Assembly (NCBI GenBank): GCA_947492375.1
Contig: CANLMI010000003.1
Location: 62,001-126,000, forward strand
DNA from: an uncultured Kordiimonas sp.
GTDB taxonomy: Bacteria > Pseudomonadota > Alphaproteobacteria > Sphingomonadales > Kordiimonadaceae
Reading direction: 5' to 3'
DNA length: 64,000 nucleotides
Shown here: one piece after another, positions 8,938 to 63,938 of the stretch
Position numbering within the stretch: the stretch's first letter is position 1
Layout of the letters: each line of letters opens with the position of its first letter
Notes under the pieces: model-generated
The model's input: the letters and a program-made list of their open reading frames with translations, nothing else
Told to the model about the DNA's origin: nothing
The model's database searches: none
Translations under genes and position numbers: made by a program

Positions 8938-9067
8938 AATAGACACTGAAAATATTAATCTTGGCATTGTCGCTGACGCCTTGATCAGGCTATGTAACAG
9001 AAGCGCGCTATAGTTTCAAATCTGAAGGTAGTGCAATGCAATTATTTTCAGGGCTTATTGAGGATAG

Positions 9068-9601
9068 ATGGTGAGATCAGGTCTAAATAAAATTGTTTCA
9101 AGTGTCTTAGTGAATTTTATTGTGCTTTTTTTGACGGCGGGTTCTGTTGCTGCTTGTGTAACAGAAGAAGGGCAGAAAGTTGGCCCAAGCGGCGGTGTTT
9201 TACCTCGCTTTGTATCGCTTTCAGCGGATGAGGCAAATATGCGTACTGGGCCGGGTAGGCAATATCCTATCGAATGGGTTTATGCGCGCCGGGATCTTCC
9301 TTTGGAGGTGATTGATGAATTTGGCCCGTGGCGGCAGGTACGAGATAATGTAGGTACCGTTGGCTGGATGCATGTGATTTTACTGGATAATAAACGCACA
9401 GCGATGATTGCCGATGAAAAGCTACGCCTTTTTGAAGAGGCCTCTCAGGCATCTGAAGTAACTATTATTGCTGACCGAGGTGTGATTGGTTCTATTGAAT
9501 TTTGTAAAGATGTTTGGTGCAAGATCAATATTGATGGCACAAGTGGTTGGGCGGAGCGTAAATATTTGTGGGGTGTATATCCTTCTGAAGTCATAGAATA
9601 A
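9068..9601 (+). CDS. Exported protein with two SH3-like domains (DUF1058/SH3_4 type)
   Basis: A 177-residue exported protein. The N-terminal hydrophobic segment is followed by AGSVAAC; VAAC fits a lipobox, so it may be a lipoprotein, although a plain signal peptide is also possible. The mature part holds two bacterial SH3-like units: LPRFVSLSADEANMRTGPG through WMHVILL (about 45-100), and a second from about 105 to 170 ending GTSGWAERKYLWGVYP. Alphaproteobacterial relatives are thought to bind cell-wall material, but the function is not established. It stands as a single gene, divergent from the dehydrogenase. Confidence 0.8.
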   Translation: MVRSGLNKIVSSVLVNFIVLFLTAGSVAACVTEEGQKVGPSGGVLPRFVSLSADEANMRTGPGRQYPIEWVYARRDLPLEVIDEFGPWRQVRDNVGTVGWMHVILLDNKRTAMIADEKLRLFEEASQASEVTIIADRGVIGSIEFCKDVWCKINIDGTSGWAERKYLWGVYPSEVIE

Positions 9602-9626
9602 CTTTTACGAATCTATAGTTGATTAG

Positions 9627-9678
9627 TTGAGTAAAGAAGTGATAGTATTTATATAAAAACTTATATAAATACTATCAC
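9627..9678 (+). promoter_or_regulatory. Promoter with perfect 18-bp-arm palindrome, probable MarR operator
   Basis: GTGATAGTATTTATATAA (9639-9656) and its exact reverse complement (9661-9678) flank a 4-base spacer. A promoter reads TTGAGT (9627-9632), 17 bp, TATATA (9650-9655), placing the -10 box inside the left arm. Transcription would then start inside the palindrome, so it is more likely a DNA operator than an RNA hairpin. It ends 11 bp before the MarR-GNAT start codon. Confidence 0.65.
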
Positions 9679-9689
9679 TTTGAGGAAGT

Positions 9690-10646
9690 ATGGAACCGAC
9701 TGAAATATATTTTGAACTTGGTATTGGAACACGGATAAGGCGCCTGTATGAAACTTTAAGCGCGGATACTGATCGTTTGTATTCTGAGCAGAATTTAAAT
9801 TTTAAAGTTAGTTATTTCTATGTGATGTATGCTCTATCAAAAAATGATAGCTTGCCTATATCAGCAATATCAACGTTAGCCGGGTTTAGTCACTCTGCGG
9901 TTAGTCAAACGGTTAAAAAGCTGGTTACACTGGGGTATGTGCAGTTTGACGGCGCTAAGGATGGTAGGCAAAAACTCGTAAAATTAACCCCCGTTGGTGT
10001 CTCAATGCTTCAGTCGCTTAGCCCGCTTTGGAAGGCTTTTGAGACTGCTATGAAACAGATTTTAGCAGAATCGCCAAATAATTTTATGACGGCATTAACG
10101 GATGTTGAGGCTGCACTGGAACATAAGAGTTTTTATGACCGTGCAAAAACACAGATGGCCGATTTGCATAACAGGCGAACAATTCCAGATGTCGATATTG
10201 TCGCCTATGACAGGCAATATCAAAAGGCATTCTACGATTTAAATATATCTTGGCTTGAAAAATATTTTACAGTTGAACCGATTGATGAATTGGTTCTTTC
10301 CAATCCAGAAGGTCACATTCTTGGCAAAGGCGGGGAAATATTTTTTGCGTTACAAGGCACAAAAGTTTTGGGTGTGGTGGCGATGAAGTTGAACGGAAAT
10401 AACGTATTTGAACTTACAAAGCTTGCTGTAGACTCGGAGGTGCGTAGAGGTGGTGTTGGCAAAGCTTTGTGTATGAAAGTGATTGAACGTTTCAATGCCC
10501 GGGGCGGTAAATTGCTTTATCTTGAAACCAATACGCGTTTAGAAAATGCAATTCGTTTATATAAAAAAATAGGGTTTAAAGAATTACCAAACCCTATGGA
10601 CAGCCCATATGAACGCTCTAATTTCTATATGGAATGGCAAGGATAA
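9690..10646 (+). CDS. MarR-family regulator fused to a GNAT acetyltransferase
   Basis: A 318-residue two-domain protein. Residues 1-150 form a MarR winged helix-turn-helix domain (SAISTLAGFSHSAVSQTVKKLVTLGYVQF, then the wing DGAKDGRQKLVKLTPVG). Residues about 165-318 form a GNAT fold with an acetyl-CoA motif A (LTKLAVDSEVRRGGVGKALC) and the usual C-terminal YLETNTRLENAIRLYKKIGF. MarR-GNAT fusions are a known architecture, but the ligand and acetyl acceptor are generally unknown. A GAGGAAG ribosome-binding site precedes the ATG. The palindrome directly upstream suggests autorepression. The gene is followed after 6 bp by a second GNAT gene. Confidence 0.88.
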   Translation: MEPTEIYFELGIGTRIRRLYETLSADTDRLYSEQNLNFKVSYFYVMYALSKNDSLPISAISTLAGFSHSAVSQTVKKLVTLGYVQFDGAKDGRQKLVKLTPVGVSMLQSLSPLWKAFETAMKQILAESPNNFMTALTDVEAALEHKSFYDRAKTQMADLHNRRTIPDVDIVAYDRQYQKAFYDLNISWLEKYFTVEPIDELVLSNPEGHILGKGGEIFFALQGTKVLGVVAMKLNGNNVFELTKLAVDSEVRRGGVGKALCMKVIERFNARGGKLLYLETNTRLENAIRLYKKIGFKELPNPMDSPYERSNFYMEWQG

Positions 10647-10652
10647 GGCATA

Positions 10653-11111
10653 ATGGCAATCGTTATTGATTATGCGGTAAGTAAAGCGGATATCGAAGCA
10701 GTAAAAACCCTTTTTCAAACATATTCGCAGTGGCTTCCTATTGATTTGGAGTTTCAGGGCCTTAAAGATGAATTTGCCAATTTTCCAGCTGGCTATGAAT
10801 TTTTATTATTAGCTAAAAATATGGGTGAGCCTATCGGCGCAGTTGGCCTAAAAAAACATTCGAATGATATATGTGAAATGAAACGTTTGTTTGTTGATCC
10901 TAACATCCAGCGTTCTGGTGTTGGTGAAGCTCTCAGCGTTCGTTTGATAGCTGAGGCAAAAAAATACGGTTTTAAAAAGATGCTGCTTGATAGTTTGCGA
11001 AGGTTAAAGCCTGCTGTTGCCCTGTATCAGAAATTAGGATTCATTGAGATAGAACCATATAATTATAACCCTGAAGAGGATGTAATTTATATGGAATTAC
11101 CATTTAAATAG
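10653..11111 (+). CDS. GNAT-family N-acetyltransferase
   Basis: A 152-residue single-domain acetyltransferase. Motif A is ICEMKRLFVDPNIQRSGVGEALS (about 78-100), followed by the motif B helix and the C-terminal PAVALYQKLGFIEIEPY. The substrate is unknown. It begins 6 bp after the MarR-GNAT stop, and its likely ribosome-binding site (AAGGATAAGG) overlaps the end of that gene, so the two are translationally linked. Being paired with a fusion that has its own GNAT domain suggests a shared detoxification or small-molecule acetylation role (inference). Confidence 0.85.
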   Translation: MAIVIDYAVSKADIEAVKTLFQTYSQWLPIDLEFQGLKDEFANFPAGYEFLLLAKNMGEPIGAVGLKKHSNDICEMKRLFVDPNIQRSGVGEALSVRLIAEAKKYGFKKMLLDSLRRLKPAVALYQKLGFIEIEPYNYNPEEDVIYMELPFK

Positions 11112-11130
11112 CCACGGATCTCGCTTTATT

Positions 11131-11517
11131 ATGCGCAAAATTATAGATGAAGGTGATGCACAAAAGCTTTTCGCGTTAGAACAACGTTTAAGTGATCCAG
11201 ATATTCGAAGTAATCCTGAAGCGCTAGCTGAAATACTCCATGATGATTTTCAAGAGATTGGAGCTTCGGGGCGTTATTTCAGTAAGATGGATATCATCCG
11301 CTTATTAAAGAGCGAAAAAGAGTATGAAGCTTATGTAATTGAAGACTTTCAGGCGATTTATATAAGTGACGATGTGATCCAGATAGTATACCGAATTCCC
11401 GCTAGAGTGTCTCCCGGTGGTGAAGCCTACGCTGGTTCACTGCGCTCATCACTTTGGCTATATACTGGAAACAAGTGGCAGATTATTTTTCATCAAGGAA
11501 CGAAAGTTTCAAAGTAA
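11131..11517 (+). CDS. DUF4440/SnoaL-like (NTF2 fold) protein
   Basis: A 128-residue cytoplasmic protein of the NTF2-like superfamily, closest in appearance to DUF4440. It has an N-terminal helix (ALEQRLSDPDIRSNPEALAEIL), the HDDFQEIGASGRYFSKMDIIRLL cone-forming segment, and alternating strands ending RSSLWLYTGNKWQIIFHQGTKV. Family members are small-ligand binding proteins or enzymes, and none of these residues fixes an activity. It lies 19 bp after the GNAT gene and is the last gene before a terminator, so it is probably part of the MarR-controlled operon. Confidence 0.75.
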   Translation: MRKIIDEGDAQKLFALEQRLSDPDIRSNPEALAEILHDDFQEIGASGRYFSKMDIIRLLKSEKEYEAYVIEDFQAIYISDDVIQIVYRIPARVSPGGEAYAGSLRSSLWLYTGNKWQIIFHQGTKVSK

Positions 11518-11556
11518 AAGCCCCACAATTGAATTGCGGGGCTTAATTATTTTATC
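11518..11556. terminator. Bidirectional terminator between converging genes
   Basis: AAGCCCC (11518-11524) pairs with GGGGCTT (11538-11544), and CAATT/AATTG extend the stem inside. A T-rich tract follows on the plus strand, and TTTTACTTT follows on the minus strand. It sits between the NTF2-like gene and the nitronate-monooxygenase-like gene, which converge. Confidence 0.75.
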
Positions 11557-11571
11557 AGTATTCAGTGTGTA

Positions 11572-12966
11572 TTAATCGCCTGATGCGATACGATTAACGA
11601 GCTGTTTGACCGTTGGTACAAATCCGTTTGAATAAAATGGATCGCTGCCAAAACGGAATACATTGTGACCAGCAAACAAAAGATTTTCATTCACGCTGCC
11701 ATCATGAGCAACGTCATCCAGTGTCTTCTGAATGCAGAAGCTACGAGGGTCAGCAAGGCGGCCAGTTGAGTTTTTCTCATTATCGGCCCAGCTTGAAAAA
11801 CGACACTGGCTTAAGCACCCAACGCAGTCAGCTTGATCCTTGCGGATTTCAGCACCTTTTTCAGCGCCAACAAAAACCAATGTATCGTCGGGTGTTTTCA
11901 TCGCTTTTTCAAAGCCAGTCTTCACCCATTCCTGAATGCGGGCAACGGCTTCGCCGCGAACAAAATATTTTTTGCGCTCTAAAGTTACCTCAGTATTGAA
12001 CTCTTCATCCTGTTTGCTTCTGAAATCAACCTGACGTTCAGAACGATTGAGAAGTTCACCGAGGAAACTGTTTTTAACAGCGCTTGAAAAGAAGCCTGTT
12101 GGGCTAAAGTTCTGTAAGAGAACATCACCTTTTTTCAGATTCAGGAGTTTTTGTTTCCACTTCTCTGAAATAGGGCTTTCTTTGGTGACAAGAGGGCGTG
12201 TGCCAAACTGAAAGACAATTGGTCCAAGTTCCTTATTATCAATCCAGTCCTTCCATTCCTTCAGGTTCCAGACACCGCCCGCCATAATAATAGGTACATG
12301 GTCAAGGCCAAGCTTGCGCATGATATTGCGCAGTTCAAGAACACGCGGGTATGGATCGCCTGGCTTGGTAGGGTCTTCAGCGTTTGAAAGGCCGTTATGA
12401 CCGCCGGCAAGCCACGGATCTTCATATACAACGCCGCCTAATAGCTCAGCGGTGTTTTTATAGGCACGCCGCCAAAGAGCATTGAAAGCACGGCCAGAGG
12501 ATACGATTGGGTAATAATGAACACCGTATTTCTGCGCTAGTTCAGCGAGCTTATATGGCATGCCGGCACCGCAAGTTACGCCGTGTACCATATCTTTGGT
12601 TTTCGCTAGAACTTCATGCAAGATGCGTTGTGCACCGCCCAGTTCCCAAAGCATGTTAATGTTAATCAAGCCCTCACCACGAGAAATTTCCCATGCTTTG
12701 CGTACTTGATCAATTGTCCCTTTGATCGAATAATCAACCATTTCATCGTGGCGGTCACGGCGGGTACGGCCATTGTACTCGTGTTCAATGGTATTGCCGT
12801 GTGCATCATAACTATCTGCAATAACTGCTGATATGGTACCAATTCCGCCAGCTGCCGCCCATGGTCCCGATGACGCGCCAGTTGAAATTGCTACACCTTT
12901 ACCACCTTCAATCAGGGGTAAAACATCTTTGCCGCCAAGCTTGATAGAGTTTAAGCTGAAACTCAT
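11572..12966 (-). CDS. NAD(P)H-dependent flavin oxidoreductase, nitronate monooxygenase family
   Basis: TIM-barrel FMN enzyme of about 464 residues related to nitronate monooxygenase and FabK. Seen are the N-terminal ISTGASSGPWAAAGGIGTISA, the substrate-loop region HGVTCGAGMPYKLAEL, the phosphate-binding stretch GGVVYEDPWLAGGHNG, and VPIIMAGGVW with QFGTRPL. The C-terminal half has a cysteine cluster (CVGCLSQCRFSSW plus a later Cys), as in longer family members; its role is unknown. I chose the ATG at 12966 because the upstream ATG at 12981 contains the ribosome-binding site (GGGAG) in its own codons. An inverted repeat lies about 65-100 bp upstream. Confidence 0.8.
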   Translation of the reverse strand: MSFSLNSIKLGGKDVLPLIEGGKGVAISTGASSGPWAAAGGIGTISAVIADSYDAHGNTIEHEYNGRTRRDRHDEMVDYSIKGTIDQVRKAWEISRGEGLININMLWELGGAQRILHEVLAKTKDMVHGVTCGAGMPYKLAELAQKYGVHYYPIVSSGRAFNALWRRAYKNTAELLGGVVYEDPWLAGGHNGLSNAEDPTKPGDPYPRVLELRNIMRKLGLDHVPIIMAGGVWNLKEWKDWIDNKELGPIVFQFGTRPLVTKESPISEKWKQKLLNLKKGDVLLQNFSPTGFFSSAVKNSFLGELLNRSERQVDFRSKQDEEFNTEVTLERKKYFVRGEAVARIQEWVKTGFEKAMKTPDDTLVFVGAEKGAEIRKDQADCVGCLSQCRFSSWADNEKNSTGRLADPRSFCIQKTLDDVAHDGSVNENLLFAGHNVFRFGSDPFYSNGFVPTVKQLVNRIASGD

Positions 12967-61784: not shown

Positions 61785-63938
61785 TTATGCTGCGCGAATT
61801 GTTGACAGGAATAGGTCAACTTGTTGCTTGAGAGTGTCTGAATTCCCAGACAATTCCCCTGCTGCTTGAAGTACGCTATGTGCCGCCGCATCAGTTTCTT
61901 GTGCTACAGTATTAACACTTGTAACACTTGTGACGACTTCCTGCGTTCCGCTTGCTGCTTCTGCTGCGCTTCGGCTGATCTCATTAGTTGCAGAAGACTG
62001 TTCATCAACGGTGGTTGAGAGAGCTAGCGCAATTTCATTGATTTCTTCAACAGTGCTACTGACTGATCCAACTGCTTTAACAGCTCCGTTCGTAATCGAC
62101 TGCATGTTGGCTATTTGGGCTTCAATTTCACTTGTTGCCCCCGCGGTTTGATTGGCAAGGCTTTTCACTTCACTTGCAACAACCGCAAAACCTTTTCCGG
62201 CGTCACCCGCCCGTGCGGCTTCAATGGTTGCGTTAAGTGCCAAAAGATTTGTTTGCTCGGCAATATCGTTAATAAGTCCAACAATTTCGCCAATTTTATC
62301 GGCTGCCTCAGAAAGTTGTGAAACCTGATTCTGTGCTTCAGACGCTGTGCTAACAGCATTTGTTGCAATAGTTGTGGCTGTTGTGACCTGCTGTTGTACT
62401 TCATTGATAGATGCGGACATTTCCTCTGCGGCGGCTGCAACAGTTTGAACATTGGCTCCGGCTAGTTCACAGGCGCTTGAGGCTGTGCTTGCTTCTGTTT
62501 GTGTATTGGATGCAGCAGATGTCATTTGACTAGCGGTAGAATTTAATTGTGTTGCAGCGCTTGCGACATCCTGAAGAACACCAACAACACTGTTTTCAAA
62601 TGTATCTGCTAACTTCATTTGGCTTTCTACGCGCTCACGCTCGGCAAGGGCTTTCATTTCCTCAACTTCAGCCTGACGTTGTTTTTCTTCCTCTGCTTCA
62701 GCTTCCACGCGGTCAGCGTCTGCAATTTCCTGGCGGAATCGATCTGCAAATGAGTTGATTTCTACAATCTTTGCCTCTCTTGCTTTGTCTTTGAAATTCT
62801 GGACTGAAGCAGCGATTTCGCCGATTTCACTACTGAAATTACTGTATGGAACATTAGTATCCAAATCACCGTCAGCAAGCATGCCCATTGAGCCACGCAG
62901 GTTATTGAGAGGTGTTGTAATACTGCGGTAAACCATGAAACTAAGAGCAATTATAAGGATTGTAATGATGATGATGCTTATCAACAAAGCCGTGAATGCA
63001 GTGTTTGCACTAGATGAATTTGAGGCAACACTTTGAACAATTTGTTGATTTAAATAATCTTCGACGTTTTTAAGAAGGTTAATTTTTTTAGTGATTTCAC
63101 CGAACCAATAAGCGCTTTCATACTCGCCGCCTGAAACATCGCCGCCTTCAGCCGCAAGCGCGTACTCACGCATTTTCTGTACGTTATCAACCGCAGAACC
63201 GCGCACTGTGTTCTTATAATAGTCTCGAGCTTCTTTAGTTGCGAATATTTCAAAGGTGTCAAGGAAACTACGTTGTTCGGCAATTAGCTCGATGAAGCGC
63301 TGACGCCCTGCGCCAACAAATTTGCCGCTGCTGTAACCACCGTTACCAAAGGCACGTTCCTGACCTGCACGTTCTTTTGCTTGCAAAAGACCGATATAAG
63401 CTGAAATACGTTTGGTTGTTGCAACATCGTCGGATAGCACAGCCATATTTTCAATTAGATCCAGCAATTTTGCGATTGTTGGTGTATAATACGATGCCAT
63501 TTGAGGAACACTACGAACCAAATCATTTACCTCTCCGCGTACCTTGGATAGGGTATTTAGTTCTTGCTGGGCCATGTCGGCAATACTAGAGAATTCCTCG
63601 CCATATTCTTTAAAGTCAAAACTCTGGCTTGCCTTTTTAAAAGCGTTAAAGGCTTTGTCGCTCTCGCTTTTTTGAGTGTTCAGAGCGGTATTTTGTGCAC
63701 TTCCGCCTTGTGAGGCAATGTAGCCGGCTGATCTGCCACGTTCTTTTTGTAGCTCATGAACCAGACCTGTTACAAAAGGCGCGTACTGCGCAAGCCTGTT
63801 TAGTTTTGATGAATTATTAGCGATAGTATTTGTATCAGATATACTTACTACCGCAAATCCGAGTGCTATTAATAATGGAATAAGAGATAAGGCAAGTATG
63901 CGCAGGCCTAATCCAAATCGATTAAAAAATTCTAACAT
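61785..63938 (-). CDS. Methyl-accepting chemotaxis protein with NIT sensor domain
   Basis: Transmembrane chemoreceptor of 717 residues. An N-terminal helix (about 10-30) leads to a large periplasmic NIT (nitrate/nitrite-sensing) domain with [26 protein letters not shown] second helix lies at about 315-337 ([24 protein letters not shown]), then a HAMP region ([24 protein letters not shown]), a Glu/Arg-rich coiled coil, and the MCP signalling hairpin ([50 protein letters not shown]). No CheR-tethering pentapeptide at the end. The ligand is predicted to be nitrate-like, not proven. Confidence 0.9.

What the first reader, a model, noticed from the sequence alone, without database searches (positions are those of the whole stretch)
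9627..11517. MarR-GNAT fusion operon behind a perfect 18-bp-arm palindrome
The palindrome (18-bp arms, 4-bp spacer) covers the -10 box of a good promoter and ends 11 bp from the start codon. Downstream are a regulator fused to an acetyltransferase, a second GNAT 6 bp later, and an NTF2-fold protein, ending in a terminator. This looks like a self-contained, autoregulated small-molecule modification unit. A perfect 36-bp dyad is longer than typical MarR operators, which suggests a high-affinity or double site.
Basis: partly seen in the sequence, partly recalled or inferred. Interest (0 to 1): 0.6.

Follow-up and report, generated by a model that had tools for sequence, protein, structure and literature searches.

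The report
Self-regulated MarR-acetyltransferase operon
A gene that joins a DNA-binding repressor to an acetyl-transferring enzyme sits behind a conserved repeat that is almost certainly its own control switch, which makes this a real but fairly ordinary self-regulated bacterial operon whose chemical target is unknown.

Summary
The palindrome has 20-nt perfect arms (9637-9656 / 9661-9680, 4-nt centre) and ends 9 bp before a 318-aa MarR-GNAT fusion gene, followed by a second GNAT and a DUF4440 gene. Its inner 20 bp (TTATATAA-N4-TTATATAA) recur, with at most 2 of 16 mismatches, shortly before the fusion in 37 of 37 close relatives' loci scored, own locus included. In 29 family genomes a strict form occurs at 19 places, 18 of them at this gene. 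Three genomes that keep the gene next door and the GNATs but have no MarR part lack the site. Best reading: a dedicated autorepressor operator. Distant fusions match the site less well (4 of 5 have 4-5 mismatches). Both GNATs keep the acetyl-CoA loop; substrate and inducer are unknown, and binding was not tested. A new member of a known kind: an autoregulated MarR operon with an enzyme fused to the repressor.

The parts
9637..9680 (.). Palindrome, 20-nt perfect arms with AAAC centre; proposed operator. Reads as four boxes at 12-bp pitch: AAGTGATA-gtat-TTATATAA-aaac-TTATATAA-atac-TATCACTT
   Evidence: arms; chance; conservation
9649..9668 (.). Conserved operator core TTATATAA-N4-TTATATAA
   Evidence: 37 of 37 near fusion loci with at most 2 of 16 mismatches; only exact match in the own genome
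9627..9655 (+). Possible promoter: TTGAGT, 17, TATATA (8 of 12); weak
   Evidence: Sequence; not listed by the scan at 9 of 12
9690..10646 (+). MarR-GNAT fusion, 318 aa; proposed autorepressor with acetyltransferase domain
10653..11111 (+). Second GNAT acetyltransferase, 152 aa
   Evidence: counterpart in 16 of the 27 other fusion loci, alone or fused
11131..11517 (+). DUF4440 protein, 128 aa
   Evidence: a counterpart in 2 of the 29 other loci, L017 and L033
11518..11544 (.). Stem-loop between convergent genes, terminator-like
   Evidence: listed on the minus strand

Best explanation
An autoregulated operon. The fusion protein binds, through its MarR winged helix and presumably as a dimer, to the TTATATAA-N4-TTATATAA core (9649-9668) in its own promoter region and represses the operon. 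Shown by comparison: site, conservation, near uniqueness in the genome, and absence where the MarR part is absent. Inferred: binding, repression, dimer, inducer, substrate. In this genome the operator has grown two outer boxes into a 44-bp palindrome, which may let two dimers bind; that is a lineage-specific variation.
For: (1) The core is present with at most 2 of 16 mismatches in the 200 bp before 28 of 28 fusion genes, 0.035 of 28 expected from shuffles, and in 9 of 9 further Emcibacteraceae-type loci. (2) TTAYRTAA-N4-TTAYRTAA occurs exactly at 19 places in 17 of 29 family genomes; 18 of 19 lie just before the fusion; reversed-pattern control 4 places. (3) Three genomes that keep the SH3-gene neighbour and the GNATs without a MarR part lack it: best 5 mismatches in G001, 8 in G005 and G007; 28 of 28 against 0 of 3 gives p = 2e-4, relatedness ignored. 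The GNAT of G001 is sister to the window's fused GNAT (support 99/96), so there the MarR part was lost. (4) In 22 of 28 loci the best sigma-70-like match (9 or more of 12) has its -10 hexamer starting inside the core. (5) Recognition-helix residues S69, A70, S72, Q73, K76 and wing residues D91, R93 are invariant in 24 aligned fusions. (6) Stand-alone MarR relatives L097 and L101 have the core with 2 mismatches at their own start.
Against: No binding data. The core is AT-rich, so its likeness to a -10 hexamer is partly built in; no control was run for point 4. The window's own promoter is weak (8 of 12), and its centre AAAC departs from the commonest GTAC. Distant fusions fit less well: L085 5 mismatches, L086, L106 and L107 4 each, L108 1. 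Seven family genomes with the fusion have no exact strict match, only 1-2 mismatches to the core. Of nine stand-alone MarR relatives looked at, seven have 3 or more mismatches. G007's GNAT does not group with the fused ones, so a loss of MarR is not shown there.
Confidence: 0.82

Rival explanations
1. The palindrome acts as RNA: a hairpin in the 5' leader that sets mRNA stability or translation of the fusion, not a protein-binding site.
For: As RNA 9630-9700 folds into one long hairpin, -23.8 kcal/mol, z -7.3; if transcription starts near 9662 or upstream, part or all of it is transcribed.
Against: Any perfect dyad folds so. What relatives keep is the sequence of the 20-bp core rather than arm pairing: outer arms are mostly unpaired (flank symmetry mean 4.4 of 12, 3.1 expected), and in 22 of 28 loci the core lies at the -10 hexamer of the best promoter match, hence mostly upstream of the start of transcription.
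Confidence: 0.06
2. Operator for another regulator of the cell; the fused MarR acts elsewhere.
For: Related stand-alone MarR proteins exist in these genomes, and some have similar TATA-rich palindromes at their own starts.
Against: The site is present with the fused MarR and absent in the three genomes without it, and 18 of 19 strict sites are at this gene: a regulator of other genes would have more sites.
Confidence: 0.08
3. Terminal repeat or relic of a mobile element, or chance.
For: Perfect long inverted repeats are common in such elements (general knowledge).
Against: No other copy in the genome; conserved position and sequence across genera; shuffles give none of this length.
Confidence: 0.01

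Closest known systems
Autoregulated MarR-family repressors that control their own operon
   Same: MarR winged helix above the Pfam cut-off, inverted-repeat site of about 20 bp at the promoter, enzyme genes in the same operon.
   Different: The repressor is fused to a GNAT enzyme, and in the window the dyad extends to 44 bp.
Proteins annotated as 'bifunctional helix-turn-helix transcriptional regulator/GNAT family N-acetyltransferase' (name recalled; the phrase appears in one paper listed, seen only as a listing)
   Same: Same order of domains: N-terminal HTH, C-terminal GNAT.
   Different: No operator or substrate for this kind turned up in the searches; here an operator is proposed from comparison.
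GNAT 3d8p (Staphylococcus aureus) and 8iyo/8iym (HP0935)
   Same: Fold of the C-terminal domain; 3d8p is the only PDB chain found by sequence and the best by fold.
   Different: Single GNAT domains at 24% identity or less; no MarR part.
PA3458 of Pseudomonas aeruginosa (PMC8070244, passages read)
   Same: MarR-type regulator of an operon that includes a GNAT.
   Different: Separate genes in divergent orientation and more than 300 binding sites, against a nearly unique site here.

Membership tests
MarR family of transcription regulators | MarR winged-helix domain | tested here: met
   PF12802 MarR_2, 35.6 bits against cut-off 27; model with helices and wing in MarR order (order recalled)
MarR family of transcription regulators | Inverted-repeat operator at the own promoter | tested here: met
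   Conserved core before 37 of 37 near fusion loci; by sequence only
MarR family of transcription regulators | Homodimer that binds DNA and responds to a ligand | not testable with these tools
   No binding or ligand data; only a single chain was modelled (pTM 0.52)
GNAT N-acetyltransferases | GNAT domain with acetyl-CoA loop R/Q-x-x-G-x-G/A (motif recalled) | tested here: met
   Pfam hits above cut-off for both proteins; RRGGVG in the fusion with G255 and G257 invariant in 24 sequences, QRSGVG in the second GNAT
GNAT N-acetyltransferases | Acetyl transfer activity | not testable with these tools
   -
GNAT toxin-antitoxin pairs | Small separate antitoxin gene next to the GNAT (recalled) | tested here: not met
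   The three operon genes are a MarR-GNAT fusion, a GNAT and a DUF4440 protein; no antitoxin family was hit

The most novel reading that the evidence does not exclude
The fused GNAT is part of the switch: it acetylates the repressor's own recognition helix (lysine 76, often followed by lysine 77, in SHSAVSQTVKKL), so that acetyl-CoA or substrate supply directly sets DNA binding. This would be a one-protein acetylation-controlled repressor. K76 is invariant in 37 of 37 near fusions, but it is absent in 5 of 5 distant fusions and present in 1 of 9 stand-alone relatives, so it marks this clade, not fusion as such, and may simply contact DNA.
Probability: 0.07. Interest if true: 0.7.

Novelty: new member of a known kind. 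Interest (0 to 1): 0.33.

Why it matters
It gives a MarR-GNAT fusion group a predicted operator that is nearly unique in its genome, and natural variants without the repressor part, which makes mechanism and inducer directly testable. Fusing sensor and enzyme raises the question whether the enzyme domain gates the repressor. Beyond that it is a typical small autoregulated operon.

Tried and rejected
A wide regulon was rejected: up to 3 mismatches give 63 places in the own genome against 112 for the reversed control; only the window site is exact, two others have 1 mismatch. Mobile-element origin was rejected. No Rfam family in 9000-12200 at the gathering threshold. A defence role has no support: the only PADLOC hits are marginal matches of the HTH part to CARF models, E about 7e-4. 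A relic of the operator in G001 (TCATCTAAGTATCTGTATGA, 5 mismatches) cannot be told from chance: 118 of 1000 shuffles do as well. A first single-protein scan of genome contigs found no relative; the scan by alignment found 46 loci. Reading recognition-helix lysine 76 as a mark of fusion was not borne out by distant fusions. The paper searches gave no paper that, by its listing, describes this fusion's regulation; one search was mostly noise; one search was left unused.

The exceptional strict site G020:C1:257574 was not examined. The list of matches was cut off by the tool.

Full report
Observation. The palindrome is real: 20-nt perfect arms at 9637-9656 and 9661-9680 around AAAC. It is the only inverted repeat of that class in the window; five shuffled windows had none with arms of 12 or more. 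It ends 9 bp before the start of a 318-aa protein with MarR_2 and Acetyltransf_1 domains. A second GNAT starts 6 bp after its stop, and a DUF4440 gene follows 19 bp after that. A stem-loop lies between this and the convergent nitronate-monooxygenase-like gene; the scan listed it on the minus strand.

Relatives. A full-length fusion is present in 23 of 28 relatives of the same family and in 4 of 5 of family f8. In the other 25 genomes of the order no strong full-length match was listed; G040 has a weak one over residues 44-300 (E 2.5e-5), and the list was cut off. In the class at large, 3 of 288 other sampled genomes have a distant one at E up to 1e-30, 30-33% identical. Two Lysobacteraceae MAGs also have it.

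Layout. The locus tends to sit after the same SH3-domain gene (17 of 30 loci) and before the convergent NMO gene (9 of 30), within the limited flanks held. Of 28 fusion loci, 17 have a counterpart of the second GNAT, alone or fused, and 15 have a further GNAT related to the fused one. DUF4440 is in 3 of 30 loci. L015 carries MarR, GNAT and the second GNAT in one 490-aa protein. The GNAT content thus varies while fusion and operator stay. The GNAT of G001, in the same genus, is sister to the window's fused GNAT (99/96), and that of G005 groups with the fused GNATs (98/90): there the MarR part seems to have been lost. G007's GNAT groups elsewhere, on a long branch.

Operator. In the 200 bp before the fusion start, all 28 loci hold TTATATAA-N4-TTATATAA with at most 2 of 16 mismatches; shuffles predict 0.035 of 28. 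Nine further Emcibacteraceae-type loci agree. Consensus of the 37: TTATATAAGTACTTATATAA; the window has AAAC at the centre. Exact TTAYRTAA-N4-TTAYRTAA occurs at 19 places in 29 family genomes, 18 of them at the fusion, against 4 for the reversed control; seven genomes with the fusion have no exact strict match. Loci without a MarR part have at best 5 (G001), 8 (G005) and 8 (G007) mismatches upstream of the GNAT; the 5-mismatch case is at chance level (118 of 1000 shuffles). Distant fusions fit less well to the strict core: L108 1 mismatch, L086, L106 and L107 4, L085 5; by eye L106 and L107 hold ATATGTAA-N4-TTACGTAA, a form of the same box pair.

The long dyad. Beyond the 20-bp core, perfect flanking symmetry of 9 bp or more occurs in 3 of 37 loci: window 12, L030 10, L015 9. 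Mean flank symmetry is 4.4 of 12 against 3.1 expected. Several loci show a third box at 12-bp pitch: mean match to TTATATAA is 3.93 of 8 at +24 and 3.50 at -12, against 1.7-3.7 at most other offsets outside the core, a modest signal. Long palindromes also stand before stand-alone relatives of this MarR: L100, 21 of 22 pairs, and L103, 16 of 18. Three such stand-alone genes (L097, L099, L100) lie divergent to an S41 peptidase gene. So extension of the dyad has precedent in the wider MarR group and is no special mark of this operon.

Mechanism. The MarR part keeps invariant recognition-helix and wing residues. Both GNATs keep the acetyl-CoA loop (motif recalled). The model is confident within domains (mean pLDDT 90.4) but not for their arrangement (pTM 0.52); the best fold matches are single GNATs of unassigned substrate, 3d8p first. 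The simplest mechanism is autorepression released by the substrate of the acetyltransferases; signal and substrate are inferred only.

Verdict. It is a new member of a known kind.

Noticed in passing
L100:2440-2485, L103 before the MarR start at 1004: Stand-alone MarR relatives have very long palindromes at their own start: 44 bp with 21 of 22 pairs (L100, Sphingorhabdus profundilacus) and 36 bp with 16 of 18 pairs (L103).
   Followed up: partly
L097:1528-2968, L099:1497-2989, L100:1418-2971: Stand-alone relatives of this MarR lie divergent to an S41-family peptidase gene in three species, with a TATA-rich palindromic site next to the MarR start: a possible separate regulatory pair.
   Followed up: partly
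L015 (G024), fusion gene: The MarR, GNAT and second GNAT domains are joined in a single protein of 490 aa.
   Followed up: no
window 63819-63837: A 3-mismatch match to the palindrome half-arm (AGCGATAGTATTTGTATCA); not more than the control expects and without a mirror copy.
   Followed up: yes
G020:C1:257574-257593: The single strict operator-like site in 29 family genomes that does not lie before the fusion gene.
   Followed up: no
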